From: Lucinisca nassula
Lineage: Eukaryota; Mollusca; Bivalvia; Lucinida; Lucinidae
Reading direction: 5' to 3'
Length of the DNA stretch: 64,000 nucleotides
NCBI GenBank assembly: GCA_963580285.1
Contig: OY757016.1
Coordinates: 44,531,124 to 44,595,123 of the forward strand
Part shown: positions 1 to 63,608 of the stretch, one piece after another
How positions within the stretch are numbered: the stretch's first letter is position 1
How the letters are laid out: each line of letters begins with the position of its first letter
Made by a program: the position numbers and the translations under genes
Notes under the pieces: generated by a model
Seen by the model: the letters and a program-made list of their open reading frames with translations, nothing else
Databases searched by the model: none
What the model was told of the DNA's origin: nothing

Positions 1-1480
1 GCATTTTTGGCCTCAGGGCTATAATTTAAACAATCTTGATAAAGGTCCACTAGATGAAGCTTCACACCAAATATCAAAGACCCAGGCCTTTCTGTTTCAG
101 AGAATAAGATTATCAAAGATTATCTCTATATAAGTCTATGTTAAACCAAAGGGCCCCAGGCGGTGGCATTTGTGGCCCAAAGGCTAAAATTTGTTCAATC
201 TTGGTAGAGGTCCACTAGATGAAGCTCCATACCAAATATCAAAGACATGGCCTTGCAGTTTCAGAGAAGAAGATTTTTAAAGATTTCCCTATATAAGTCT
301 ATGTAAAACCAAAGGGTCTCGGGGCGAGGGCATTTTTGGCCCCAGGCCTATATTTTGAACAATCTTGATAGAGGTGCACTAGTTGAAATTTCACACCAAA
401 TATCAAAGACCTAGGCCTTGTGGTTTCATAGAAGAAGATTTTGAAAGATTTTCCCTATGTAAGTCTATGTAAAACCAAAGGGCCCCGGGGCGGGGGAATT
501 TTTGGCCCCAGCACTTTAATTTGAACATTCTTGGTAGGGGTCCACTAGATGAAGCTTCATACCAAATAGCAAAGACCTGGGCCTTGCAGTTTCAGAGAAG
601 AAGATTTTTAAAGATTTTCCCTATATAAGCCCATGTAAAACCAAAGGGCCCCGGGGCAAAGGCATTTTTGGCCCCAGCAGTATAATTAGAACAATCTTGG
701 TAGGGGTCCACTAGACTAAGCTTCATACCAAATATCAAAGACCAGGGCCTTGCGGTTTCCGACAAGAAGATTTTTAAAGATTTTCCCTACATAAGCCCAT
801 GTAAAACCAAAGGGCCCCGGTGCGGGGGCATTTTTTGCCCCAGCACTATAATTTGAAACATCTTGGTAGGGGTCCACTAGATGAAGCTTCATACCAAATA
901 TCAAAGACCTGGGCCTTGCGGTTTCAGAGAAGAAGATTTTTAAAGATTTTCCCTATATAAGCCTATGTAAAACCAAAGGGCCCAGGGGCGGAGGCATTTT
1001 TGGCCCCAGCACTATAATTTGAACAATCTTGGTAGGGGTCCACTAGATGAAGCTTCATATAAAATATCAAAGACCTGGGCCTTGCGGTTTCAGAGAAGAA
1101 GATTTTTAAAGATTTTCCCTATATAAGCCTATGTAAAACCAAAGGGCCCCGGGATGGGGGCATTTTTTGCCCCAGCACTATAATTTGAACAATCTTGGTA
1201 GGGTTCCACTAGATAAAGCTTCATACCAAATATCAAAGACCTGGGCCTTGCGGTTTCAGAGAAGAAGATTTTTTAAGTTTTCGGTGAAAAAATATATTTT
1301 TGGCTCCCGTGACCTATATGTGCAACGGACCGGAACCATTTGAACAACTTTGAAAGGGGTCCACCTAAGGATCATTCCTGAGAAGTTTGGTCAAAATCCG
1401 ATCAGTGGTTTAGGAGGAGATGACGATTGAAGAAATTGTTTACGCACGGATGACAGACAAAAAGTGATCCTAATATAAAA
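1..1480 (+). repeat. Pearl/Helentron-like element A, ~167 bp tandem array, left-truncated
   Basis: About eight head-to-tail copies of a ~167 bp monomer, each running from an AAAACCAAAGGGCCC start through GGTCCACTAGATGAAGCTTC to TTTTCCCTATATAAGCC. From about 1270 the monomer gives way to a unique tail (CGGAACCATTTGAACAACTT, then GATCAGTGGTTTAGGAGGAG) and a short ACGGATGACAGAC stretch. Monomer array, tail and microsatellite remnant match the plan of pearl/Helentron-carried satellites of bivalves. The left end lies outside the window and the usual terminal hairpin is missing. Short ORFs here read through repeat units and are not genes. Confidence 0.75.
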
Positions 1481-3000: not shown

Positions 3001-6000
3001 TCATTCCTTTTTAGGTTGGGGAGGAACAAAGCAGCGAGATGCTGACAATCTTAGATTTACTGACATATAAGTTTCATTTCTCAATATGAAATTTTCAGAA
3101 ATATAAACAGGTGTCAGCTCATTATACACCTTAAACATAAATTTTGCCTTTCTAAGGAAAAGTCGGTCATATATGGATAGAATTTTCAAAGAACTCAAAG
3201 CCTCACAAGAGTTTTCGACATTATAATCCAAGATTACTTTACATGCTCGCTTTTGAAGTCTGTAAATCTTTATTTTATTAGACTCTGAAGTGCTGCCCCA
3301 AGCAATGTTACAAAAATCAATGTGTGGTTGTATGTAGGATTTGTAAAATTGAATACGATGGGTTTGTGATAAAAAAGTTTTGATTTTAGATAATAGCCAT
3401 ATATTAGATGAGATTTTCTTTGTTATATGTTTAACATGGTTAGACCATGATAAATTATTATCCACAAAGACACCTAAGACCTTTTCACTGGAAACAGTCT
3501 TCAAAGATTCCTCCATGTATTGAAGTTTAAGATCAGAAGCATTTAATCTTTGACGTCTTTGCTTATTAGTGACCAACATGACTTTAGTTTTTGCAGTATT
3601 AAGAAGCATACCATTACTTTTGCACCACATATGAAGTTGACTGAGAGCTAATTGAAGATTTTGTTCGATCATTTCCAAAGAATTTTGAATGTCATATAGA
3701 GTAGTGTCATCGGCATACAGATCGGCAGAAACATTATCGATGCATAAAGGTAAATCATTTATGAAAAGCAAAAACAACAGAGGACCTAGAATGGAACCTT
3801 GCGGAACCCCACAATTAACTGTTTCAAAATCAGACTTGCTATTGTTTACAGAAACTTGCTGTTGTCTGTGTGAAAGATATGTATCAAACCATTTAAGGCT
3901 TTTGCTTTCAATACCATATAGTTTCATTTTTGACAAAAGAATCTGATGATCAACAAGATCAAAGGCCTTTTTAAAGTCAACCAGTACAACTCCTACCATA
4001 TTCCCATTATCCATTGCATTTAACCATGAATCAGTCATATGTACCAAGGCAGTTTCACAGGAATGCTGGGTTCTGAATCCGGATTGAGTTTTGTGCAATA
4101 GATTATGGTCTTGAAGAAAGCTAGAAAGGCAGTCGTGGACATGTTTCTCCAGGACCTTTGACAAAACAGGTAAAATTGATATTGGGCGATAGTTATTAAC
4201 ATCGTCATGGGGACCACTTTTATGAAGAGGAGATACCTTAGCTTCTTTCCATTTATTTGGAAATGTAGCATTATTTATGCTATGATTGCAGATAAAAGCA
4301 ATATCTTCAGCAATATAGGGTGCTGCAAGTTTAAGCAGACGGGGTCCAATATTGTCAGTACCAGTTGATTTACTTATGTCTATACTTGAAAGGTGTTTTA
4401 AGACTTTTTCTTTTTCAATATTAGAGATTTTAAATTTTGTATTTTCTGAAAGCTTGGCTTGGCAAAATTCTTTTAATTTTTCATTGCTGGAATTAACGAC
4501 GGGTTCTTTAATTTTTGTAGCAACATTAACAAAGAACTTGTTGAATGTGTTGGCAATTTCAGTAGGATCCTCAGTATGCGACCCATTATTAGTGACAGAT
4601 GAAATACTAGATGTTTTTCTACAACCTTTGCCCGCACCTACTTCTTGAAAAAGTTTATAGATACTGCCTGGTTTATTCTTATTATTTTCTATAAAAGTTT
4701 GATACTGTAACTTTTTGTTTTCTTTTATTGACTTGGAAACTTTGTTTCTCCAGTACTTATATTCGTTCTCATTTCCAAGGGACTTATGCCTGTCTCTGGT
4801 TTTTATGGCATCTATGATGTCAGGAGTTATCCACTGAGGCTGGTTTTTGCGCCTGACCCTATGTTGTTTAATAGGAACATTTTTGTCGACTGCTTCCAAG
4901 AAAAGATCTGTCCATGTCTCCAATATATCATTTGTGTCATCAAATAATTTGATAAGGTCCCAAGGAATGGACTGGAGATCACTAATAAACTTAGCCTCAT
5001 CAAAGTTTTTAAATGACCTATATGAAATAGTGTAATGATTACCTGTTGATGGGCGATTATGCATTTTTCTTGTGAAAAATACTGGAAAGTGGTCACTTAG
5101 TCCTATCTTAGGTACAATTACAGATTTAACATTCTCCGGACAATTTGTATAAATGTGATCAAGTAGAGTTCTAGTGTCAGGGGTTACCCTTGTGGCTTCA
5201 GAGATCAATTGAGTTAAACCAAATGGTTCCATGTAATCAGCCCATGCCCTGTGTATTTGACCATTAAGGAGATCTCTATTTATGTCACCAAGTAGATAAA
5301 TTTCTTTTTCTTCCTGTAAAATTTTTTCAATGCTGTCTTCAAAGAACTCATTCCACTGAACAGTGGAATTTGGGGGTCTGTATATATGACCGACTAAAAA
5401 AGGCCTGCTTTTCACTGGTTTTATTTCGATCCATATACACTCAAGTTTTTCACTTTCTAGATCTGATCGTCTGTTACAACAGACACCATCTTTTACATAG
5501 ACTAATAGTCCCCCACCCGAATTTTCTTTTCTGTCCCGCCTAAATGGCTTTTGAAAGCCATTTATTTCAAAAGGTCTGTCAGGATGTGCTTCATGTAACT
5601 TGGTCTCACTCACGCCTAAAATGTGAATAAGATTATGTTCAGATTGAAGAAGTAATTTTAACTGATCTATTTTGTTACTTAGACCCTGAATATTCAGGTG
5701 CCCTATTCTAAAACCTTTATCTCTGAATCCTAGGTTTAAAGCATTGTGATTGTTTTCTACAGCCTGACTAAAAGATACCTCCTGTGGATCATGCATGGCT
5801 GAACTAAGGATACTCCCTGAAGTGGAACTTGATACCTGTGTATTTTGCACAGGTACCTGGCTAACTGATACCTGCTGGGTATCATAAAGAGAGGAGCTCA
5901 GATTACTATCAGAAATGGTGTTTGGAGACTGCAGGGTATCATTAGTCTGCTGATTGTAATAATTTTGATTATAATCACATTGGTAAGAACTGTGAAGCAA

Positions 6001-6249
6001 CATACAATTACTATCACTGACTGAAGTATTAGAAACATGTACATGAACATTGTCTTCATAAGTAAATGAGGGCCTCTGGAACAAAGTATCGTGAACATTG
6101 GAATCAGTATAACATAAAGTAGTGTTTTCTGACAGATTATTGTTAATGTAGCTAGAGTTTAACATTTTATTTTCTGCTATGCTGTTGTGACTTTCTGTTA
6201 TATGGGAAGTGTTATTCTGAGACATAAGCACTTCACTCAACAGTGTCAC
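3001..6249 (-). CDS. LINE ORF2: apurinic endonuclease and reverse transcriptase, C-terminally truncated
   Basis: 1082 residues counted from a GTG at 6249; the first ATG is residue 9 (6223-6225). Residues 1-175 are Ser/Asn/Gln-rich and without recognised domain. Residues 180-395 form the AP-type endonuclease that nicks target DNA: HLNIQG with Asn186, SETKL with Glu215, GDIN at 321-324 and SDHFPV with Asp386/His387. The reverse transcriptase spans about 660-935: NNYRPIS, LVDFKKAFDLVDH with catalytic Asp758, GVPQGSILGPLL at 814-825 and LYADDTT with Asp847/Asp848. Together these carry out target-primed reverse transcription. The frame stops after PPQPKKE; the family's usual C-terminal tail lies just downstream in another frame. 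The RT motifs resemble the L2/CR1 group. Confidence 0.93.
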   Translation of the reverse strand: MTLLSEVLMSQNNTSHITESHNSIAENKMLNSSYINNNLSENTTLCYTDSNVHDTLFQRPSFTYEDNVHVHVSNTSVSDSNCMLLHSSYQCDYNQNYYNQQTNDTLQSPNTISDSNLSSSLYDTQQVSVSQVPVQNTQVSSSTSGSILSSAMHDPQEVSFSQAVENNHNALNLGFRDKGFRIGHLNIQGLSNKIDQLKLLLQSEHNLIHILGVSETKLHEAHPDRPFEINGFQKPFRRDRKENSGGGLLVYVKDGVCCNRRSDLESEKLECIWIEIKPVKSRPFLVGHIYRPPNSTVQWNEFFEDSIEKILQEEKEIYLLGDINRDLLNGQIHRAWADYMEPFGLTQLISEATRVTPDTRTLLDHIYTNCPENVKSVIVPKIGLSDHFPVFFTRKMHNRPSTGNHYTISYRSFKNFDEAKFISDLQSIPWDLIKLFDDTNDILETWTDLFLEAVDKNVPIKQHRVRRKNQPQWITPDIIDAIKTRDRHKSLGNENEYKYWRNKVSKSIKENKKLQYQTFIENNKNKPGSIYKLFQEVGAGKGCRKTSSISSVTNNGSHTEDPTEIANTFNKFFVNVATKIKEPVVNSSNEKLKEFCQAKLSENTKFKISNIEKEKVLKHLSSIDISKSTGTDNIGPRLLKLAAPYIAEDIAFICNHSINNATFPNKWKEAKVSPLHKSGPHDDVNNYRPISILPVLSKVLEKHVHDCLSSFLQDHNLLHKTQSGFRTQHSCETALVHMTDSWLNAMDNGNMVGVVLVDFKKAFDLVDHQILLSKMKLYGIESKSLKWFDTYLSHRQQQVSVNNSKSDFETVNCGVPQGSILGPLLFLLFINDLPLCIDNVSADLYADDTTLYDIQNSLEMIEQNLQLALSQLHMWCKSNGMLLNTAKTKVMLVTNKQRRQRLNASDLKLQYMEESLKTVSSEKVLGVFVDNNLSWSNHVKHITKKISSNIWLLSKIKTFLSQTHRIQFYKSYIQPHIDFCNIAWGSTSESNKIKIYRLQKRACKVILDYNVENSCEALSSLKILSIYDRLFLRKAKFMFKVYNELTPVYISENFILRNETYMSVNLRLSASRCFVPPQPKKE

Positions 6250-6426
6250 ACTATTCTTATCATTGAAAGAAGTGCGATTCAGTTCATCTGAATGAACAAC
6301 ATGACTGTCAGTGATACAATAACAAATACTTGAGTTACATTCTGAGCAAACTGCATATAAAGAGGAAAACCTGTTGGAAACGGAAAAAGACTGATATTTG
6401 CAAGCGGCACCATTGCCGTGTTCCTA
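6250..6426 (-). promoter_or_regulatory. In-frame UAG and 58-codon open spacer joining ORF1 to ORF2 (possible readthrough site)
   Basis: The ORF1 stop is TAG at 6424-6426, followed by GAA CAC GGC. Reading on in the same frame there are 58 sense codons and no stop before the GTG at 6247-6249 that opens the ORF2 frame, so 8259 to 3001 is one frame broken by a single UAG. The spacer encodes a Cys- and Ser-rich stretch containing CSECNSSICYC and no ATG. It could be programmed readthrough, a nonsense mutation in a fused ORF, or chance with reinitiation at the first ORF2 ATG (6223-6225). Confidence 0.5.
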
Positions 6427-8259
6427 TTTATTTAAGCACCTAGAAGATTTGTGACCATAGAAGCCACAATGGAAACATTTTAATTGCACAGCATGTCTAC
6501 ATAAATGAGTTTCATGATTAGTTTCTCCACATTTATAGCAAGCAGAGTCTTTCTTAGCACTTTCCGTATGGTGTCTACCTGTAGACCTTGATGAACGGGC
6601 AGACTGTCTTTGACCATTCATTTGAACTTGTCTGTTGTGAAAATGAACTTTCTTCTGTTGGTGATTTTTGTAAACACAACTGTCGAAATTAGACACAATC
6701 GTAATTTCTGAGTCGATAACACCTAGCAACCTCTTCACTCCTGAGGCTGACAGATGAATTGAATCTTTAGCATAGTATCTTTCAATGATAGAACCATGTT
6801 TGTCATAAAAAGCCTTATTAATATCAATCATGCTAATGCTGTGGTGCTGGCACAATCTATAAATAACTTCATTCATGTCTGATGTGTCCGTGTCTCCCCT
6901 AGGGCATAGATTACAAAGGTATATCTGGCAAGAGTTATTCGCTTGCTTCAGATACTGAATGACTTGTTCGTAAATTTCTTCAAAGTATTCAGTATCTGAA
7001 CCACTCGACGCATCATTTCCTCCCACATATATGATAACATGTGAGAACTGATCAATGTTAAACACTTTAGCTTGTTTCAATATATGATCAACTTTTGCGC
7101 CAGATATGCCTTGCTTAAAGACTCCTTGTTTTAAACCCTTAGAATTAACCGATGAAATTAATGAGTCACCCATAAGCAGAATGTTCTGTGGGATATTTCT
7201 GTTCTGTGATGTAGGATTGGCTGTAGGTCTGGATGGGCGGTCTGACCTATGCTGATGTCTAGGCCTTGGTCTTGGGCTTGGTCTGTTTGTATTTTGTTGT
7301 TTGGTGGTCTTAGGTGTAGAGGTACGTTGAACCACTTCACTATATGACGAGTTGCCTGGTTGGGGGGTCTCGGCAATGGGCAGTACCTCTGTGTTATTCC
7401 TGCCCTCTCTTGATTGACTTTCAGCCTCATTTGATGTATTGCCTAATGTGCTCGAGATGTACGTTTCATCGACTGTTCTGTAGACTTTCTTACTAGCTGC
7501 CTGGCATACTAACTCATTTACTTGCTTTGTCAGTGTAGTCATCTGACACTGCAGCATATGAATCATGTCCATTAGAGTAGATATCTGTCTCAATATTTGT
7601 GCATCTTGTGGCTGAGTAGATTCTACCTGTTGAGAAGGTTCTGGCTGCTGTATCGAATGCTGTGTTACTGGTGCTGTAGGGGGTATCACATATGTTTCAT
7701 CTATTGTGGTGTAATTACTCCCAGACTGATTTTCATGTGTTGAGATCTGGGTATCTGATAAGATTTGATTGTTTTGGTTTTGTGAGCTTGAGTTGAGTAT
7801 AGAATTAGTATTATCTACAAAACTCCTATACATATTTTCTGAGAGTTTCCTGAAGTTATTTTCTTTCCAGAGGACATGACCAGGTCCACTGGCACAAATA
7901 GACATGACTTCCCTGTCTATATAAATATTACACCTTTTGCTGTCCACATGTGTCTTGATATGAAATTTCTTAGCATCATCAGATGGAAATTTGAATTCTT
8001 TACTTAGCACTGTCAGTATATTATTGTATAGTGGTTTGTTATAAAACAGAATATTAAATTTTGTGCTGTCCTGGGCTGGCATCAGATGGTAAAAAATGTT
8101 ATTGAATGGGTCAGTTATGCCTGATTCTGGGCTGACATCACTACTGGCAAATCCTGAAAGTTCTTCCATAGCACGGCTGTCTGAAAGTAAAACACTATTT
8201 CCAGGAGAAGACTCAGTCAGTCCACTAGAATTTGTAGAATCTCCTTGTAATCCTGCCAT
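6424..8259 (-). CDS. LINE ORF1: coiled coil, SGNH hydrolase-like domain, two CCHC zinc knuckles
   Basis: 611 residues. The ATG at 8257-8259 has a favourable context (ACAATGG). Residues 1-50 are Ser-rich; 55-148 form a compact conserved-looking domain I cannot name; about 150-220 are Gln/Ser/Thr-rich; 221-252 is a likely coiled coil, expected to mediate ORF1p multimerisation; 320-355 is basic and Pro/Arg-rich. Residues 358-515 look like an SGNH/GDSL hydrolase: GDS at 364-366 (Ser366), GGND at 413-416, and DSIHLS with Asp499 and His502. The C terminus has two knuckles of form CX2CX4HX4C (C574/C577/H582/C587 and C595/C598/H603/C608), expected to bind the element RNA. An esterase domain in ORF1 is known from CR1-group LINEs. 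It ends in TAG and is in frame with ORF2 downstream. Confidence 0.9.
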   Translation of the reverse strand: MAGLQGDSTNSSGLTESSPGNSVLLSDSRAMEELSGFASSDVSPESGITDPFNNIFYHLMPAQDSTKFNILFYNKPLYNNILTVLSKEFKFPSDDAKKFHIKTHVDSKRCNIYIDREVMSICASGPGHVLWKENNFRKLSENMYRSFVDNTNSILNSSSQNQNNQILSDTQISTHENQSGSNYTTIDETYVIPPTAPVTQHSIQQPEPSQQVESTQPQDAQILRQISTLMDMIHMLQCQMTTLTKQVNELVCQAASKKVYRTVDETYISSTLGNTSNEAESQSREGRNNTEVLPIAETPQPGNSSYSEVVQRTSTPKTTKQQNTNRPSPRPRPRHQHRSDRPSRPTANPTSQNRNIPQNILLMGDSLISSVNSKGLKQGVFKQGISGAKVDHILKQAKVFNIDQFSHVIIYVGGNDASSGSDTEYFEEIYEQVIQYLKQANNSCQIYLCNLCPRGDTDTSDMNEVIYRLCQHHSISMIDINKAFYDKHGSIIERYYAKDSIHLSASGVKRLLGVIDSEITIVSNFDSCVYKNHQQKKVHFHNRQVQMNGQRQSARSSRSTGRHHTESAKKDSACYKCGETNHETHLCRHAVQLKCFHCGFYGHKSSRCLNK

Positions 8260-8568: not shown

Positions 8569-9751
8569 ATATAAGCCAATGTAAAACCAAAGGGCCCCGT
8601 GGCGGGGGCATTTTTTTTCGTCCCAGCACTATAATTTGAACAATCTTGGTAGGGGTCCACTAGATGAAGCTTCATACCAAATATCAAAGTCCTGGGCCTT
8701 GTGGTTTCAGAGAAGAAGATTTTTAAAGATTTTCCCTATATAAGCCTATGTAAAACCAAAGGGCCCCGGGGCGGGTGCATTTTGGCCCAAGCACTATAAA
8801 TTGAACAATCTTGGTAGAGGTCCACTAGATGAAGCTTCATACCAAATATCAAAGACCGGGGCCTTGTGGTTTCAGAGAAGAAGATTTTTAAAGATTTTCC
8901 CTATATAAGCCAATGTAAAACCAAAGGGCCCCGTGGCAGGGGCATTTTTTGTCCCAGCACTTAAATTTGAACAATCTTGGTAGGGGTCCACTAGATGAAG
9001 CTTCATACAAAATATCAAAGACCTGGGCCTTGTGGCTAAAATTTGAACAATCTTGGCAAAGGTCCACTAGATGAAGCTACACATCAAATATCAAAGACCT
9101 GGGCCTAGCGGTTTCAGAGAAGAAGATTTTTAAAAATTTTGCCTACATAAGCCTATGTTAAATAAAAAGGGCCCCGGGACAGGGGCATTTTTTGCCCCAG
9201 CACTATAATTTGAACAATCTTGGTAGGGGTCCACTAGATGAAGCTTCATACCAAATATCAAAGTCCTGGGCCTTGTGGTTTCAGAGAAGAAGATTTTTAA
9301 AGATTTTCCCTATATAAGCCTATGTAAAACCAAAGAGCCCCATGGCGGGGGCATTTTTTGTCCCAGCACTATAATTTAAACAAAGAAGATTTTTAAAGAT
9401 TTTCCCTATATAAGCCTATGTAAAACCAAAGGGCCCCGTGGTGGGGGCATTTTTGGCCCCAGCACTATAATTTGAACAATCTTCGTAGGGGTCCACTAGA
9501 TGAAGCTTCATACCAAATATCAAAGACCTGGGCCTTGTGGTTTCAGAGAAGAAGATTTTTAAAGATTTTCCCTATATAAGCCAATGTAAAACCAAAGGGC
9601 CCCGTGGCGGGGGCATTTTTTGTCCCAGCACTAAAATTTGAACAATCTTGGTAGGGGTCCACTAGATGAAGCTTCATACCAAATATCAAAGTCCTGGGCC
9701 TTGTGGTTTCAAAGAAGAAAATTTTTAAAGATTTTCCCTATATAAGCCTAT
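8569..9751 (+). repeat. Continuation of the ~167 bp satellite array right of the LINE
   Basis: Some seven monomers, several truncated or fused (junctions near 9037 and 9380), resuming at the ATATAAGCC point where the LINE inserted. A cluster near 9037-9160 repeats the GGCAAAGGTCCACTAGATG variant also seen at 1650, so higher-order duplication inside the array is likely. Confidence 0.75.
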
Positions 9752-9967
9752 TCTTACGACCTGAAAGCCGTAACAAAGGAAAGATGCATAGCCTGAAAAA
9801 AATCCCCGCCTATGGTGGGATTCGAACCCGGGCCGCCCGGGTGATAGTCCACTGCTCTTACCCCTGAGCCAAAGAGTCGACTCTCTGACGCAGGTGTCAG
9901 AGAGTGTTTATAAACCTAGAAGCTATGCATATGATCTACCAAGGTAGATAATGGAAGGGAGGTAACA
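9752..9967 (-). repeat. 3' LTR of the TRIM-like element
   Basis: Same length and, by eye, same sequence as the 5' LTR. The A-box match is at 9871-9861 and the B-box match at 9828-9818. A purine tract (GAAGAGGGGG, within 9968-9983) sits immediately 5' of it on the minus strand, where plus-strand priming would start. Confidence 0.8.
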
Positions 9968-10040
9968 CACCCCCTCTTCAAGGAAGTCATCATTTATGAT
10001 GACGTGAAGGATACCAACTTCGGCACAAGCCAATTCTGGC

Positions 10041-10058
10041 ATTTCGGACGAGCCCCCA
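10041..10058 (-). promoter_or_regulatory. Primer-binding site, proline-tRNA type
   Basis: The 18 bases TGGGGGCTCGTCCGAAAT directly follow the 5' LTR on the minus strand. The known proline-tRNA primer site ends CCGGGAT rather than CCGAAAT, giving 16 of 18 matches. Position and sequence together make chance unlikely. Confidence 0.8.
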
Positions 10059-10274
10059 TCTTACGACCTGAAAGCCGTAACAAAGGAAAGATGCATAGCC
10101 TGAAAAAAATCCCCGCCTATGGTGGGATTCGAACCCGGGCCGCCCGGGTGATAGTCCACTGCTCTTACCCCTGAGCCAAAGAGTCGACTCTCTGACGCAG
10201 GTGTCAGAGAGTGTTTATAAACCTAGAAGCTATGCATATGATCTACCAAGGTAGATAATGGAAGGGAGGTAACA
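10059..10274 (-). repeat. 5' LTR of the TRIM-like element
   Basis: Runs TGTTACC to GTAAGA on the minus strand. It contains perfect matches to Pol III A-box (TGGCTCAGGGG, 10178-10168) and B-box (GGTTCGAATCC, 10135-10125) consensuses in tRNA-like spacing and order, so it could drive Pol III transcription. The anticodon and T arms pair poorly, so this is tRNA-like rather than a tRNA gene. Confidence 0.8.
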
Positions 10275-13206
10275 CTATGTAAAACCAAAGGGCCCCGGGG
10301 CGGGGGCATTTTAGGCCCCAGCACTATAATTTGAACAATCTTGGTAGGGGTCCACTAGATGAAGCTTCATACCAAATATCAAAGACCTGGGCCTTGTGGT
10401 TTCAGAGAAGAAGATTTTTAAAGATTTTCCCTTTATAAGCCTATGTAAAACCAAAGGGCCCCGGGGCGGGGGCATTTTTGGCCCCAGCACTGTAATTTGA
10501 ACAATCTTGGTAGGGATCAACTAGATGAAGCTTCATACCAAATATCAAAGACCTGGGCCTTGTGGTTTCAGAGAAGAAGATTTTTAAAGATTTTCCCTAT
10601 ATAAGCCAATGTAAACTAAAGGGCCCCATGGCGGGGGCATTTTTTGTCCCAGCACTAAAATTTGAACAATCTTGGTAGGGGTCCACTAGATGAAGCTTCA
10701 TACCAAATATCAAAGTCCTGGGCCTTGTGGTTTCAGAGAAGAAGATTTATAAAGATTTTCCCTATATATGCCTATGTAAAACCAAAGGGCCCCGGGGCGG
10801 GGGCATTTTTGGCCCCAGCACTATAATTTGAACAATCTTGGTAGGGGTCCACTAGATGAAGCTTCATACCAAATATCAAAGACCTGGGATTTGTGGTTTC
10901 AGAGAAGAAGATTTTTAAAGATTTTCCCTATATAGCCTATGTAAAACCAAAGGGCCCCAGGGCGGGGGCATTTTTGGCCCCAGCATTATAATTTGAACAA
11001 TCTTGGTAGGGGTCCACTAGATGAAGCTTCATACCAAATATCAAAGACCTGGGCCTTGTGGTTTCAGAGAAGAAGATTTTTTAAGTTTTTGGTGAAAAAA
11101 AATCTATTTTTTGCTCCTGTGACCTAGATGTGTAACGGACCGGAACCATTTGAACAACTTTGAAAGGGGACCACCTAAGGATCATTCCTGTGAAGTTTGG
11201 TCAAAATCCGATCAGTGGTTTAGGAGGAGATGTCGTTTAAAGAAATTGTTTACGCACGCACGGACGGACGCACGCACGCACGACGGATATTCCCTACATA
11301 AGCCTACGTAAGCCGAGGCGGGGGCATTTTTGGCCTCAGGGCTATAATTTGAACAATCTTGGTAGACATCCACTAGATGAAGCTTCACACCAAATATCAA
11401 AGATCTGAGCCTTGTGGTTTCAGAAGAAAGATTTTCCCTGTATAAGCCTATGTAAAACCAAAGGCCCCCGGGGCGGGGCATTTTTGGCCCTAGGACTATA
11501 ATTTGAACAATCTTGGTAGAGGTCCACTAGGAGAAGCTTCACACCAAATATCAAAAACCTGGGCCTTGTGGTTTTAGAGGAGAAGATTTTTAAAGATTTT
11601 CCCTATATAAGCCTATGTAAACCGAAAGGCCCCTGGGGCGGGGGCATTTCTGGCCCAAGTGCCATAATTTTGAACAATCTTGGTAGAGGTCCAATAGATG
11701 AAGCTTCATACCAAATATCGAAGACCTGCGCCTTTCGGTTTCGGAGAAGAAGATTTTCCCTGCATAAGCCTATGTAAAACCAAAGGCCCCACGGGAGGGG
11801 GCATTTTTGCCCCCTAGAGCTATAATTTGAACAATCTTGGTAGAGGTCCACTAGGTGAAGCTTCACACCAAATATCAGAGACCTGGGCCTTGTGGTTTCA
11901 GAGAAGAAGATTTTTAAAGATTTTCCCTATATAAGCCTATGTAAATCCAAAGGCCCCCGGGGCAGAGGCATTTCTGGCCCATTTTTGCCCCCTAGGGCTA
12001 TAATTTGAACAATCTTGGTAGAGGTCCACTAGGTGAAGCTTCACACCAAATATCAAAGACCTGGGCCTTGTGGTTTCAGAGAAGAAGATTTTTAAAGATT
12101 TTCCCTATATAAGCCTATGTGAATCCAAAGGCCCCCGGGGCAGGAGCATTTCTGGCCCAAGGGCCATAATTTGAACAATCTTGGTAGAGGTCCACTAGAT
12201 GAAGCTTCACACCAAATATAGAAGACATGGGCCTTTCGGTTTCAGAGAAGAAGATTTTTAAAGATTTTCCCTGTATAAGCCTATGTAAAACCAAAGGCAC
12301 AAGGGGCGGGGGTATTTTTGGCCCTAGGGCTATAATTTTAACAATCTTGGTAGAGGTCCACTAGGTGAAGCTACACACCAAATATCAAAGACCTGGGCCT
12401 TGTGGTTTCAGAGAAGAAGATTTTTAAAGATTTTCCCTATATAAGCCTATGTAAATCCAAAGGCCCCCGGAGCAGGGGCATTTCTGGCCCAAGGGCAAAA
12501 ATTTGAACAATATTGGTAGAGGTCCACTAGATGAAGCTTCACACCAAATATAGAAGACCTGGGCCTTGCGGTTTCAGAGAAGAAGATTTTTAAAGATTTT
12601 CCCTGTATAAGCCTATGTAAAACCAAAGGCCCCCGGGGCGGGGGTATTTTTGGCCCTAGGGCTATAATTTTAACAATCTTGGTAGAGGTCCACTAGGTGA
12701 AGCTTCACACCAAATATCAAAGACCTGGGCCTTGTGGTTTCAGAGAAGAAGATTTTTAAAGATTTTCCCTATATAAGCCTATGTAAGCCCAAAGGCCCCC
12801 GGGGCGGGGGCATTTCTGGCCCAAGGGCCATAATTTGAACAATCTTGGTAGAGGTCCACTAGATGAAGCTTCATACCAAATATCAAAGACCTGGGCCTTG
12901 CGGTTTCGGAGAAGAAGATTTTTAAAGTTTTCATTTTAAAAATCTATTTTTAGCTCCTGTGACCTAGATGTGCAATGGACCGGAACCATTTGAACAACTT
13001 TGAAAGGGGACCACCTAAGGATCATTCCTGTGAAGTTTGGTTAAAATCCAATCAGTGGTTTAGGAGGAGATGTCATTTGAAGAAAAAGTTTACGCACACA
13101 CGCACACACACACGCACGCACGCACACACGCACACACGCACGACGGACGACGGACAAAAAGTGATCCCAAAAGCTCACCTTGTCACTACGTGACAGGTGA
13201 GCTAAA

Positions 13207-32492: not shown

Positions 32493-32798
32493 GTTTGTTT
32501 GTTTGTTTGCACTGAGTTTAATGGCCCAGTCAACACTATTTTAGGTCATTTTTGAGCCGGTCAGTTTACCTATCCATACTTTTCCTGGGCAGGCTTAAAC
32601 GTAAGTGGTTAACCAGTACAGCGCAGAAACTGACGACTGCCCTTCTTGAATCAGCGGAAGGGAGAGAATGACCGTAGAAAAGATTTCATGATCTATCTAC
32701 ATGAAAGAATGTTGCCGACCCCGGCAGATTATCGAACCCGCATCCTCCTGATCACCAGTCAGACGCGCATCCCACTGAGCTACCAAGGCCGGCTTCAT
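32493..32798 (-). repeat. SINE family D, full-length
   Basis: The head on the minus strand has TAGCTCAGTGGGATGCGCG and a degenerate B-box; the 3' end and CAAA tail lie left. TGGTAACTT flanks it (32484-32492 and 32799-32807). Confidence 0.82.
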
Positions 32799-61242: not shown

Positions 61243-61664
<422 letters not shown>

Positions 61665-61815: not shown

Positions 61816-63608
61816 GCTTCCGGTAACATCGCGGATTCTGAAACATCGCGTTATCGGTATTTTCCACTGACGTAATTGCACAGCGCCCCGAGATCCCGTT
61901 CAAGTGGAAAAATCCACAACCAAGAAGTCACGTGATTCATTACAAAACAAAAATGGGATAATGAATCGTTTCCTGATAAGTTTTATTAATATTTTCACTT
62001 TTCTTATATGAAACTCGCAATTTAGAATGTCTGCATACCCCTTATGTTATTTTTCATTCCCTAGCAGCTGAGAAAATTATCCGATGCTGACCCCGACTTT
62101 GACAGGTGATCGTCTGCTTAGCCCTTTAAAAATGGCCGCGTGTTTCGATCACGTGGAGACACCATCAAACTTTGCAAACAAAATAAGGCTCCAAAGGGGA
62201 TAATTACTAATTGGCAATTAATTAACTTTTATGTGAGGTTACTTTCTGTCCGTTTGTAACAGTTTCTGGTATTTTTGTGTATATGAAAACTGCATGTTTT
62301 TTTTATTTTGGATCCTGTAATGAAAAAATTGGTTGACTGTATGTACTTAATTTTTTAAGCCTATTGATACTAAGCTCCACCACCATGAAAACTATATTAA
62401 AGGGACCACATCAACAGCCTGTCAGGACATAACATGCCATAAAGTCACCCAACGTTGCTTCAGTTTCAGCTAAAGTGAACTTTAAACCCATGCTCAGTGC
62501 ACCTAGCTTAAATACTAACAATGACTAACTTCAATTGACATATGAGGACAACTATGACTGATTTTTCAGTTAATGCTAGAGAGAAGTGTTGTAAATGTGT
62601 GCTGTGGGGGACGAAGGCTTTTCGCGGGTGTTCTATCTATCTATCTATCTTCTGATACTGCGTCGGTCACATTTGACCATTACCGCAGGTGTATATTACA
62701 TACACTCCAGGTTTTGCAGGATGAAAGCCTACACAGTAATCATGTAATTACGGTAGGGATCTTTAACCTGCACAGGGGATGGTTCTCCCTGCACAGGGGG
62801 CCTCCAGTTAACGTCCTGGTCCGAAGGACGGTGCACTTTATGACATTCATCCCTGCAAATGATGCCAATGGAGCGTGTTCGGACACCGAAATTTTATCGC
62901 CGCTGCCGGGGATCGAACCCGGGACCTCTAGCATCAGAGGCAAGTGCACTAACCACTGAGCTATCACGCTCCACGAACAGTACTAGTATCCTTATTCTAG
63001 AATCTATCACGTTCTAGTATCCTTATTGCTAAATGGACCAAATGTTATATTTGCTCTCCTTGTACAAACCTCATGTATTGTTCTGAAGTCATGGTTGTGA
63101 GTCTTGGTTGCATTTTCAGGTGCCCACAAGGCTTCTCTAAACCATAAATGCGACAACGACTAAAAAATAAATGTCAAAGCACTGAAACAAATATCCTGTA
63201 AATACGTTAAGTTTCTGTTTATATGTTCATGGTTTCTATTAAAGCTGATCTACCTTGGTCAAACTTAAACCGGCACAAATCAATATTAAGTGTTCAAACA
63301 GTGACAGCCCTAGGTGTAAAAAAAAAATAATTTACTTTCCTCTTATGGAGCCTCAATTGTTTACCGCGATGTTAGGATACTCTCCCTTGACAGACATTTT
63401 TCAATATGGCTACCGGTTGAACCAGAACTTACGCTAAGTATTGAATTTCAAAGGACTTCATGATACATAAGATTGAGGAAGAATAAATGAACTTCACACC
63501 TATCAAAAAATTGTTTAAAGGTGACTGTTGCAAATTTATTTATTTTATTTTTTTCCGTAAGTACCGCGATATTCTCGAATGCCGGGCTACAGGGAGAATA
63601 GCAGCGGA
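61816..63608. other. ~1.8 kb block inserted in the LINE, unidentified, contains SINE F copy 2
   Basis: Separates the LINE GESSVWAAVLS region from LYINDIS. The left edge has a GCGATGTT/AACATCGCG-rich segment (61826-61860). Otherwise AT-rich with no ORF of interest. The expected GVPQG box of the LINE is missing, so a deletion probably accompanied the insertion. Confidence 0.4.
62632..62974 (-). repeat. SINE family F, second copy, short GATA tail
   Basis: Differs from 61245-61664 by scattered substitutions, and its tetranucleotide tail is only about 5 units. No clear target duplication. Confidence 0.8.

What the first reader, a model, noticed from the sequence alone, without database searches (positions are those of the whole stretch)
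9752..10274. Miniature LTR retroelement whose LTRs carry a tRNA-like Pol III promoter
Sequence shows two matching 216 bp direct repeats, an 18-base primer site at 16/18 to proline-tRNA type directly abutting the 5' LTR, a polypurine tract abutting the 3' LTR, a 4 bp CTAT duplication, and only 91 bp between the repeats. Each LTR holds perfect A-box and B-box matches in tRNA order. The plant TRIM Cassandra, whose LTRs contain 5S rRNA promoter sequence, is the closest known parallel. A tRNA-bearing animal TRIM would be a distinct type: a SINE-like promoter inside a retrovirus-like replication layout.
Basis: partly seen in the sequence, partly recalled or inferred. Interest (0 to 1): 0.88.

Follow-up and report, generated by a model that had tools for sequence, protein, structure and literature searches.

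The report
tRNA-promoter mini-retroelement paired with Gypsy
This 523-base stretch is a tiny retrovirus-like jumping element of a recently described kind (Helenus) whose repeated ends carry a tRNA-like sequence predicted to act as its promoter, and its genome also holds hybrids joining this element to a full-size Gypsy retroelement, the element that likely copies it.

Summary
On the minus strand, two identical 216-bp LTRs flank a 91-bp core with an 18-nt primer site (16/18 to the proline-tRNA type) and a polypurine tract; CTAT flanks the element. It belongs to a high-copy family: one 18-base LTR end occurs 662 times. Of 38 parsed copies, 30 have 4-bp and 6 have 5-bp target duplications; solo LTRs and tandem arrays exist. 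It is not a SINE dimer.

The kind is published: Helenus/TRIMp3 (Kojima 2024), with bivalve families that use tRNA-Pro. So this is a new member, not a new type.

Not found in the papers I read or searched: fossils of its replication. (1) A Gypsy family in the same genome has the same primer site but a different LTR, with TATA box and AATAAA. Thirteen places join the Helenus LTR end to that Gypsy's leader; one chimera has two identical Helenus LTRs and a CTTT duplication. (2) Three of these have Gypsy U3 joined to Helenus R-U5. (3) Twenty-five fold-back loci look like dimers of minus-strand strong-stop DNA, some with arms from different copies. Hybrids and fold-backs point to an RNA 5' end near LTR 85, 12 nt before the A box. 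Pol III transcription is predicted, not tested.

The parts
9748..9751 (.). target-site duplication CTAT, left copy
   Evidence: sequence; interrupts a 166-bp satellite unit
9752..9967 (-). 3' LTR (element reads on the minus strand), 216 bp, TGTTACC...CGTAAGA
   Evidence: identical to 10059-10274
9796..9802 (-). T7 run, Pol III terminator-like, in the 3' LTR (LTR 166-172)
   Evidence: LTR 167-172 is T in 85-97% of 41 other LTRs, position 166 in 17%
9818..9828 (-). B box GGTTCGAATCC in the 3' LTR (LTR 140-150)
9861..9871 (-). A box TGGCTCAGGGG in the 3' LTR (LTR 97-107)
9873..9884 (-). 12-nt palindrome AGAGTCGACTCT (LTR 84-95); inferred start of R and dimer contact, 3' LTR copy
   Evidence: centre of 23 fold-back loci; joint of hybrid LTRs
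9968..9979 (-). polypurine tract GAAGAGGGGGTG abutting the 3' LTR
9986..10003 (-). core stem-loop GTCATCATAAATGATGAC
   Evidence: matching motif in 28 of 40 copies of mixed subfamilies; function unknown
9968..10058 (-). 91-bp core, no coding capacity
10041..10058 (-). primer-binding site TGGGGGCTCGTCCGAAAT, proline-tRNA type (recalled), 16/18; many other copies and the Gypsy partner carry CCGGGAT
10059..10274 (-). 5' LTR, 216 bp
10103..10109 (-). T7 run in the 5' LTR
10125..10135 (-). B box in the 5' LTR
10168..10178 (-). A box in the 5' LTR
10180..10191 (-). palindrome AGAGTCGACTCT in the 5' LTR; inferred RNA 5' end about 10190 (LTR 85)
10275..10278 (.). target-site duplication CTAT, right copy

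Best explanation
The feature is a Helenus-type TRIM (TRIMp3): two identical 216-bp LTRs with tRNA-type A and B boxes around a 91-bp core with primer site and polypurine tract, flanked by a 4-bp duplication, and it is predicted to be transcribed by RNA polymerase III and likely copied and inserted by the proteins of a Gypsy family in the same genome. The RNA likely starts at about LTR 85, reads past the T-run of the 5' LTR and ends in the 3' LTR (as reported for Cassandra). It would be packaged with Gypsy RNA, primed at the shared tRNA-Pro-type site, reverse-transcribed with two strand transfers and integrated through the LTR ends TGTTA.../...CGTAAGA. Shown: structure, duplications, LTR-LTR identity, solo LTRs, Helenus-Gypsy joins, hybrid LTRs, fold-backs. 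Inferred: Pol III, the RNA ends, co-packaging, use of Gypsy enzymes.
For: Structure. Family: 662 exact LTR-end 18-mers, backward control 0. Duplications: 30 of 38 at 4 bp, 6 of 38 at 5 bp, the other 2 lie in arrays. Within-copy LTR difference averages 0.83 with 24 of 36 identical, against 3.9 between copies. Three solo LTRs with 4-bp duplications. One other copy's LTR passes the tRNA cut-off. B box and T-run kept in most of 41 LTRs; no AATAAA or ATTAAA in LTR or core. Gypsy: same primer site TGGGGGCTCGTCCGGGAT in 7 of 7 copies read, LTR with TATA at 259 and AATAAA at 484-492; frame with a SCAN match (CCHC match below its cut-off) and a Gypsy-type RNase H. Thirteen Helenus-LTR/Gypsy-leader joins, control 0: 10 read, the others are L032, L122, L065. 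Chimera C2:132956272-132967400 has Helenus LTRs identical 215/215 and duplication CTTT. Hybrid LTRs L144, L145, L152 join at GAGTC, Gypsy 285-289 and Helenus 85-89. Fold-backs: 25 loci, 15 with the U5 end on both sides, 12 of those with 4-bp duplications; arms that differ.
Against: No transcript data. A TATA-like TATAAA at LTR 56-61 would place a Pol II start near 86, so the mapped 5' end does not separate the polymerases; but it is poorly conserved (0.68). The joints used for mapping lie in short shared sequence (GAGTC; GAG in L109) or in a native palindrome, so they could mark homology rather than the RNA end. The T-run in the 5' LTR should stop Pol III early, so read-through is required. 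The A box is not more conserved than the rest (0.79 vs 0.80 for LTR 60-216); the window copy has G where many others have C or T. The window copy is missed by Rfam's tRNA model and only 1 of 12 other loci passes it in the LTR. Helenus LTRs end in GA, the Gypsy's in CA with a 5-nt spacer before the primer site. I did not read the Gypsy's integrase, 3' end or target duplications. In the C2 chimera one sampled 2-kb piece (L135) has no Gypsy frame and resembles other repeats, so most of its 10.7-kb middle is not shown to be Gypsy.
Confidence: 0.82

Rival explanations
1. The element is a TRIM transcribed by Pol II from the TATA-like box at LTR 56-61, and the tRNA-like sequence is a relic of a SINE insertion.
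For: TATAAA at LTR 56 sits about 30 bp before the inferred RNA 5' end, the same geometry as in the Gypsy partner (TATA 259, joint 285-289). The tRNA body is degenerate in the window copy.
Against: The window's bases at 56-61 are kept in 0.68 of 41 LTRs on average, against 0.88 for the B box. No AATAAA or ATTAAA in LTR or core. T-run kept just downstream of the tRNA-like body.
Confidence: 0.2
2. A different autonomous element moves Helenus; the Gypsy found here only recombined with it occasionally because they share a primer site.
For: Only 13 leader joins in a family with at least 662 LTR ends. LTR ends differ (GA vs CA, spacer). None of 40 loci fetched by the LTR-end/primer junction held an autonomous core; the chimeras came to light later.
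Against: Leader joins, hybrid LTRs and the L109 capture all involve this one Gypsy family, which is high-copy (1605 first-look candidates, the 40 scored at 97-100%). But after L065/L066 my searches were aimed at this family and would not show another partner.
Confidence: 0.25
3. The fold-back copies are inverted duplications made in chromosomal DNA at the palindrome AGAGTCGACTCT, not products of reverse transcription.
For: The centre is a native palindrome, and palindromes can seed inverted duplications (general knowledge).
Against: 12 of 15 copies with the U5 end on both sides have exact 4-bp duplications at those ends, so they were inserted as such. Arms carry different variants (L126, L130, L133 at 12, 11 and 9 sites).
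Confidence: 0.08
4. Tandem SINE dimer with a chance primer-site match.
For: A and B boxes as in a SINE.
Against: LTR-core-LTR copies with 4-5 bp duplications, matched LTR pairs, primer site and PPT kept across subfamilies (copies sampled by the primer junction), chimeras joined at the primer site.
Confidence: 0.01

Closest known systems
Helenus (Kojima 2024, PMC10886601), animal/bivalve families
   Same: TRIM with tRNA-like sequence (boxes A and B) in LTRs, PBS and PPT, 4-bp duplications, tRNA-Pro among bivalve primers, Gypsy as the proposed helper; tandem arrays (zebrafish) and solo LTRs (fungi) reported.
   Different: Not compared to Repbase consensus (not held). For animals the paper infers the helper from primer-site similarity. 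In the sections read I saw no chimeras, hybrid LTRs, fold-backs or mapping of the RNA start; its text has no 'palindrom' or 'inverted'.
Cassandra (plant TRIM with 5S rRNA sequence in LTRs)
   Same: Pol III-type internal promoter and terminator in LTRs, TRIM layout, tandem arrays (PMC7215508 passages; PMC10886601).
   Different: tRNA-type, not 5S: no 5S family hit in the window copy; animal; a Gypsy partner seen through joins.
biv-TRIM (Satovic 2019, PMC6934838; abstract, first part of results and passages seen)
   Same: Bivalve TRIM of similar size, tandem arrays, solo repeats.
   Different: No canonical PBS reported there; its conserved core motif (best 9/14) and primers (12/20) are absent from this element.
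Copia-9_PGr / LTR-1_PTrit pair (fungal Helenus and likely helper, in Kojima 2024)
   Same: Helper recognised through shared internal sequence, LTRs unrelated.
   Different: Fungal, Copia, 5-bp duplications; there the core is shared between families, here individual recombinants between two families are seen.

Membership tests
Helenus (TRIMp3) | short non-autonomous element: two LTRs and a non-coding core, 311-1263 bp in all | tested here: met
   523 bp, core 91 bp, no long frame
Helenus (TRIMp3) | tRNA-like sequence with box A (TRGCY...YGG) and box B (GGTTC) in the LTR | tested here: met
   TGGCT and GGTTC present; many other copies have C/T before GG, the window copy G; 1 of 12 other loci passes the tRNA cut-off in its LTR, the window copy has no match
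Helenus (TRIMp3) | PBS next to 5' LTR and PPT next to 3' LTR | tested here: met
   37 of 38 parsed copies begin the core TGGGGGCTCG, L021 GGGGGGCTCG (those had been chosen for a 100% core match); PPT
Helenus (TRIMp3) | 4-bp target duplications in animals | tested here: met
   30 of 38 are 4 bp, 6 of 38 are 5 bp
Helenus (TRIMp3) | helper is a Gypsy element (animals) | tested here: inconclusive
   13 leader joins, three with hybrid LTRs, with one Gypsy family support it; use of its enzymes is untested
Helenus (TRIMp3) | transcription by RNA polymerase III | not testable with these tools
   no RNA or ChIP data; also unproven in the founding paper
Helenus (TRIMp3) | sequence similarity to published bivalve Helenus consensus | not tested
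   Repbase and supplementary tables not available
Cassandra | 5S rRNA sequence in LTR | tested here: not met
   no 5S match at E<=10
tRNA-derived SINE (dimer) | single units without core or LTR-type insertion signature | tested here: not met
biv-TRIM | core motif TGATCCCAAAGGAC | tested here: not met
   best 9/14 in the element

The most novel reading that the evidence does not exclude
Pol III-made Helenus RNA and Pol II-made Gypsy RNA are packaged in the same particles, and this genome keeps the fossils: strong-stop DNAs that dimerise through a 12-nt palindrome at the RNA 5' end and integrate by two U5 ends, template-switch chimeras, and Gypsy elements whose LTR is Gypsy U3 plus Helenus R-U5, which places a tRNA-type promoter inside an autonomous element. 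These fossils map the start of a tRNA-promoter TRIM's RNA without any RNA data.
Probability: 0.55. Interest if true: 0.78.

Novelty: new member of a known kind. Interest (0 to 1): 0.6.

Why it matters
Who moves animal TRIMs with Pol III-type promoters was proposed from primer-site resemblance, and where their RNA starts was not mapped in what I read. Physical joins between one Helenus family and one Gypsy family, hybrid LTRs and dimer-like fold-backs turn both questions into sequence tests that can be repeated in any genome with Helenus. They also suggest a retrotransposon particle can carry RNAs made by two different polymerases.

Tried and rejected
SINE dimer: rejected. Autonomous element with the same LTR end and primer junction: 20 loci from the 100 places listed (L077-L096) and 20 of the 29 hits (L097-L116) were short Helenus copies or remnants (L082, L098, L099, L101 weak, L108 truncated); the partner was then found through L065/L066. 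Host species: genome notes with 19 chromosomes did not fit 2.93 Gb (listings), and an assembly-length search found nothing relevant. Homologues of the window's LINE include proteins binned with Candidatus Thiodiazotropha and a Lucinoma symbiont; that these are clam symbionts is partly recalled, and it fits a bivalve without naming it. Since contig C20 is still 102 Mb, a 19-chromosome guess was dropped. Inverted copies as a palindromic lineage that breeds true: rejected, because arms and own 3' LTR can differ. L143's joint at Gypsy LTR 290 and L109's joint lie in short homologies, so I count them as weak for mapping RNA ends. In one search (13 loci) the row of L131 was mis-parsed and is not used. 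Count of hybrid LTRs genome-wide (CTCATTGAGTCGACTCTTTGGCTC): not completed. Two other unanswered patterns were dropped (HATGGGGGCTCGTCCGGGA, AAGAGGGGGTGTGTTACD). Literature searches on strong-stop palindromes and TRIM chimeras: listings and abstract starts only, nothing matching seen; papers outside the open library are not covered.

Full report
OBSERVATION. The window holds two identical 216-bp repeats, 9752-9967 and 10059-10274, with 91 bp between them. CTAT flanks them on both sides, and the element interrupts a 166-bp satellite unit that continues on either side. All directional features read on the minus strand: LTR TGTTACC...CGTAAGA; primer site TGGGGGCTCGTCCGAAAT directly after the 5' LTR (10041-10058), 16/18 to the proline-tRNA type, which I recalled; polypurine tract GAAGAGGGGGTG directly before the 3' LTR; A box TGGCTCAGGGG at LTR 97-107 and B box GGTTCGAATCC at LTR 140-150.

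FAMILY. The genome (G000, 2.93 Gb, 696 contigs, unnamed) holds many copies. A search with the element scored 40 of 2067 first-look candidates and listed 47 matches. An exact 18-base LTR end occurs 662 times, with 0 for the reversed control. I fetched 20 copies from the first list and 20 from the core search, the latter all with a 100% core match. With the window, 38 of 41 had two complete LTRs; L032, L038 and L043 were set aside. Of the 38, 30 have an exact 4-bp duplication, 6 an exact 5-bp one, and 2 none; the latter sit in tandem arrays. Mismatched flank pairs agree in 8 of 1406. LTRs of one copy differ by 0.83 bases on average, with 24 of 36 pairs identical (the two array copies dropped); LTRs of different copies differ by 3.9. 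Among the first 100 listed LTR ends I fetched the 13 that seemed alone: 3 are solo LTRs with 4-bp duplications (L059, L063, L064), 3 are whole copies with a changed second LTR end (L060, L061, L069), 2 are fragments (L062, L068), and 5 belong to larger structures described below or arrays (L057, L058, L065, L066, L067). This is LTR-retrotransposon replication, not a SINE dimer.

SUBFAMILIES AND CONSERVATION. Forty further copies chosen by the LTR-end/primer junction (20, 20 of 29) reach down to about 70-80% identity. CCGGGAT follows the primer-site start in 26 of the 40, but the first 20 had been chosen for CCGGG; of the 20 not so chosen, 9 have CCGGGAT and none has the window's CCGAAAT. In an alignment of 41 other LTRs with the window's (figures are the share with the window's base, gaps counted as misses) the best conserved block is LTR 167-216 (T-run and U5), though the sampling pattern fixes its last bases. 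The B box averages 0.88, the A box 0.79 (LTR 60-216: 0.80) and the TATA-like 56-61 averages 0.68. The tRNA covariance model misses the window copy. Of 12 other loci given, one Helenus LTR (L103) fits the model from end to end at 29.6 bits against a cut-off of 29, and one more (L081) scores 21.5. From the L103 fit the tRNA body corresponds to about LTR 90-161; the T-run follows a few bases later in the family (in L103 itself it is TTTCTT). That is the layout of a tRNA gene with its terminator. Neither LTR nor core of the window copy has AATAAA or ATTAAA. A core stem-loop GTCATCATAAATGATGAC is matched in 28 of 40 copies.

THE GYPSY PARTNER. L065 and L066 lie 10.9 kb apart on one strand: a Helenus LTR followed by TGGGGGCTCGTCCGGGATAAAACC and a long frame with a SCAN match (a CCHC match stays below its cut-off), and a Gypsy-type RNase H (RT_RNaseH_2, 1.3e-33) followed by the Helenus core and LTR. 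The two LTRs are identical over 215 bases and the flanks repeat CTTT. Most of the 10.7 kb between them was not read; one 2-kb sample (L135) shows no Gypsy frame and resembles other repeats, so a nested insertion is likely. The joint between RNase H and the Helenus core lies exactly at the first base of the primer site, where a template trimmed to the primer site would end; that reading is inference. A search with the leader found a high-copy Gypsy family: 1605 first-look candidates, the 40 scored at 97-100%. Seven of these copies were read at their 5' ends: LTR 552-561 bp, TGTTATGCATAAG...TTCGTAACA, TATA at 259, AATAAA at 484-492, then a 5-nt spacer and the same primer site. Apart from the ends TGTTA and CGTAA(C/G)A its LTR does not resemble Helenus (best hit 10 bases). 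Its 3' half and target duplications were not examined.

JOINS. The pattern for Helenus LTR end plus Gypsy leader occurs 13 times, reversed control 0. I read 10 of them; the other three are L065, L032 and L122. L147, L149 and L150 are a Helenus LTR with its own flank followed by the leader (in L150 the leader breaks off after 70 bases into an inverted Gypsy LTR). L143, L146, L148 and L151 follow a Helenus core, that is, they continue tandem Helenus units into the leader; L143 and L146 then break off into Gypsy LTR and Helenus sequence. L144, L145 and L152 have hybrid LTRs: Gypsy U3 (from about position 176, where the fetched stretch begins) up to the shared GAGTC, then Helenus R-U5. The joint is Gypsy 285-289 and Helenus 85-89; a start about 26-30 bp after the TATA box is expected there. 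L144 and L145 are 5.75 kb apart in tandem and probably one event. In L109 both Helenus LTRs contain Gypsy leader and gag start, joined to Helenus at LTR 85-88, with flanking CTAT. L057 has an inverted Gypsy leader next to its Helenus core and was not resolved further. The simplest reading is strand transfer of Helenus strong-stop DNA, whose 3' end lies near LTR 85, onto Gypsy RNA. Against it: the joints use short shared sequence, which could choose the place by itself.

FOLD-BACKS. Some copies have a 5' LTR replaced by inverted R-U5 joined to R-U5. The centre GCCAAAGAGTCGACTCTTTGGC occurs 23 times; all 23 were read, plus L038 and L114, whose joints lie a little further in. Of the 25, 15 carry the U5 end on both sides and 12 of these have exact 4-bp duplications. 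Of the three without, L032 and L122 run into the Gypsy leader and L128 continues as an array. The other 10 are truncated, nested or run off the fetched stretch. In the six first parsed, only AGAGTCGACTCT (LTR 84-95) is native at the centre. Arms can come from different molecules: they differ at 12, 11 and 9 sites in L126, L130 and L133, and in L058 the inverted arm shares two private variants with its own 3' LTR while the other arm does not. In L128 the arms are identical, in L032 they differ at one site, and in L058, L071, L072, L073, L124 and L127 at 2-4 sites, some of which may be later mutations. I read these as dimers of two minus-strand strong-stop DNAs annealed at a palindrome at their 3' ends and, in the longer copies, used in place of plus-strand strong-stop DNA. 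This mechanism is inference.

MECHANISM. Hybrid LTRs, the fold-back centre and L109 put the RNA 5' end at about LTR 85, 12 bp upstream of the A box and just ahead of the tRNA body, as expected for a tRNA-type Pol III gene. A TATA-like box at 56-61 would allow a Pol II start at the same place, so this does not decide the polymerase; lack of AATAAA, the conserved T-run and B box, and the variable TATA favour Pol III. A Pol III transcript must read through the first T-run; Kojima's introduction states that Cassandra RNA starts in the 5' LTR and ends in the 3' LTR (passage).

WHAT IS KNOWN. Kojima 2024 (abstract, results, discussion, figure legends and tables read) defines Helenus: tRNA-like LTRs, PBS, PPT, 4-bp duplications in animals, bivalve families in five orders of Pteriomorphia, tRNA-Pro among primers, and Gypsy helpers proposed from primer-site similarity. 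The present element meets the features I could test. I did not compare it with Repbase. I found no report of Helenus-Gypsy chimeras, hybrid LTRs or integrated strong-stop dimers in the searches made or by term in Kojima's text, but the library is open-access only.

VERDICT. Real, correctly located, and already a known kind; new member. The added interest lies in the recombinant fossils that point to the likely helper and to the RNA start.

Noticed in passing
window 3001-6249 and 6424-8259, minus strand: Non-LTR retrotransposon with two long frames: 1082 aa (endonuclease, reverse transcriptase) and 611 aa (GDSL-type esterase); several named database relatives are binned with bivalve symbionts, which fits host carry-over.
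   Followed up: partly
window 1-1282, 1634-2408 and around 9400-10700: 166-bp satellite-like tandem arrays; the element sits inside one unit.
   Followed up: no
window 61597-61654 and 62906-62963, minus strand: Two tRNA-model matches inside near-identical sequence, probably copies of a tRNA-derived SINE.
   Followed up: no
window 32714-32791, minus strand: ARAGORN calls a tRNA-Thr (ggt) that Rfam's tRNA model does not list at its cut-off.
   Followed up: no
L009-L048 and window copy: Duplication length is mixed: 30 of 38 copies at 4 bp and 6 of 38 at 5 bp, within one family.
   Followed up: partly
L075 (C5:3444100-3447200): Array of Helenus units in both orientations, flanked by CAGC on both sides.
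   Followed up: no
L123 position 152: Exact core motif of biv-TRIM, so a second TRIM family may live in this genome.
   Followed up: no
LTR 173-200 in 41 copies: A U5 block (GCTATGC.TCTTTCCTTTGTTACGG) is the most conserved part of the LTR, more than the promoter boxes; reason unknown.
   Followed up: no
L077-L079: Helenus subfamily with a core of about 390 bp containing extra sequence.
   Followed up: no
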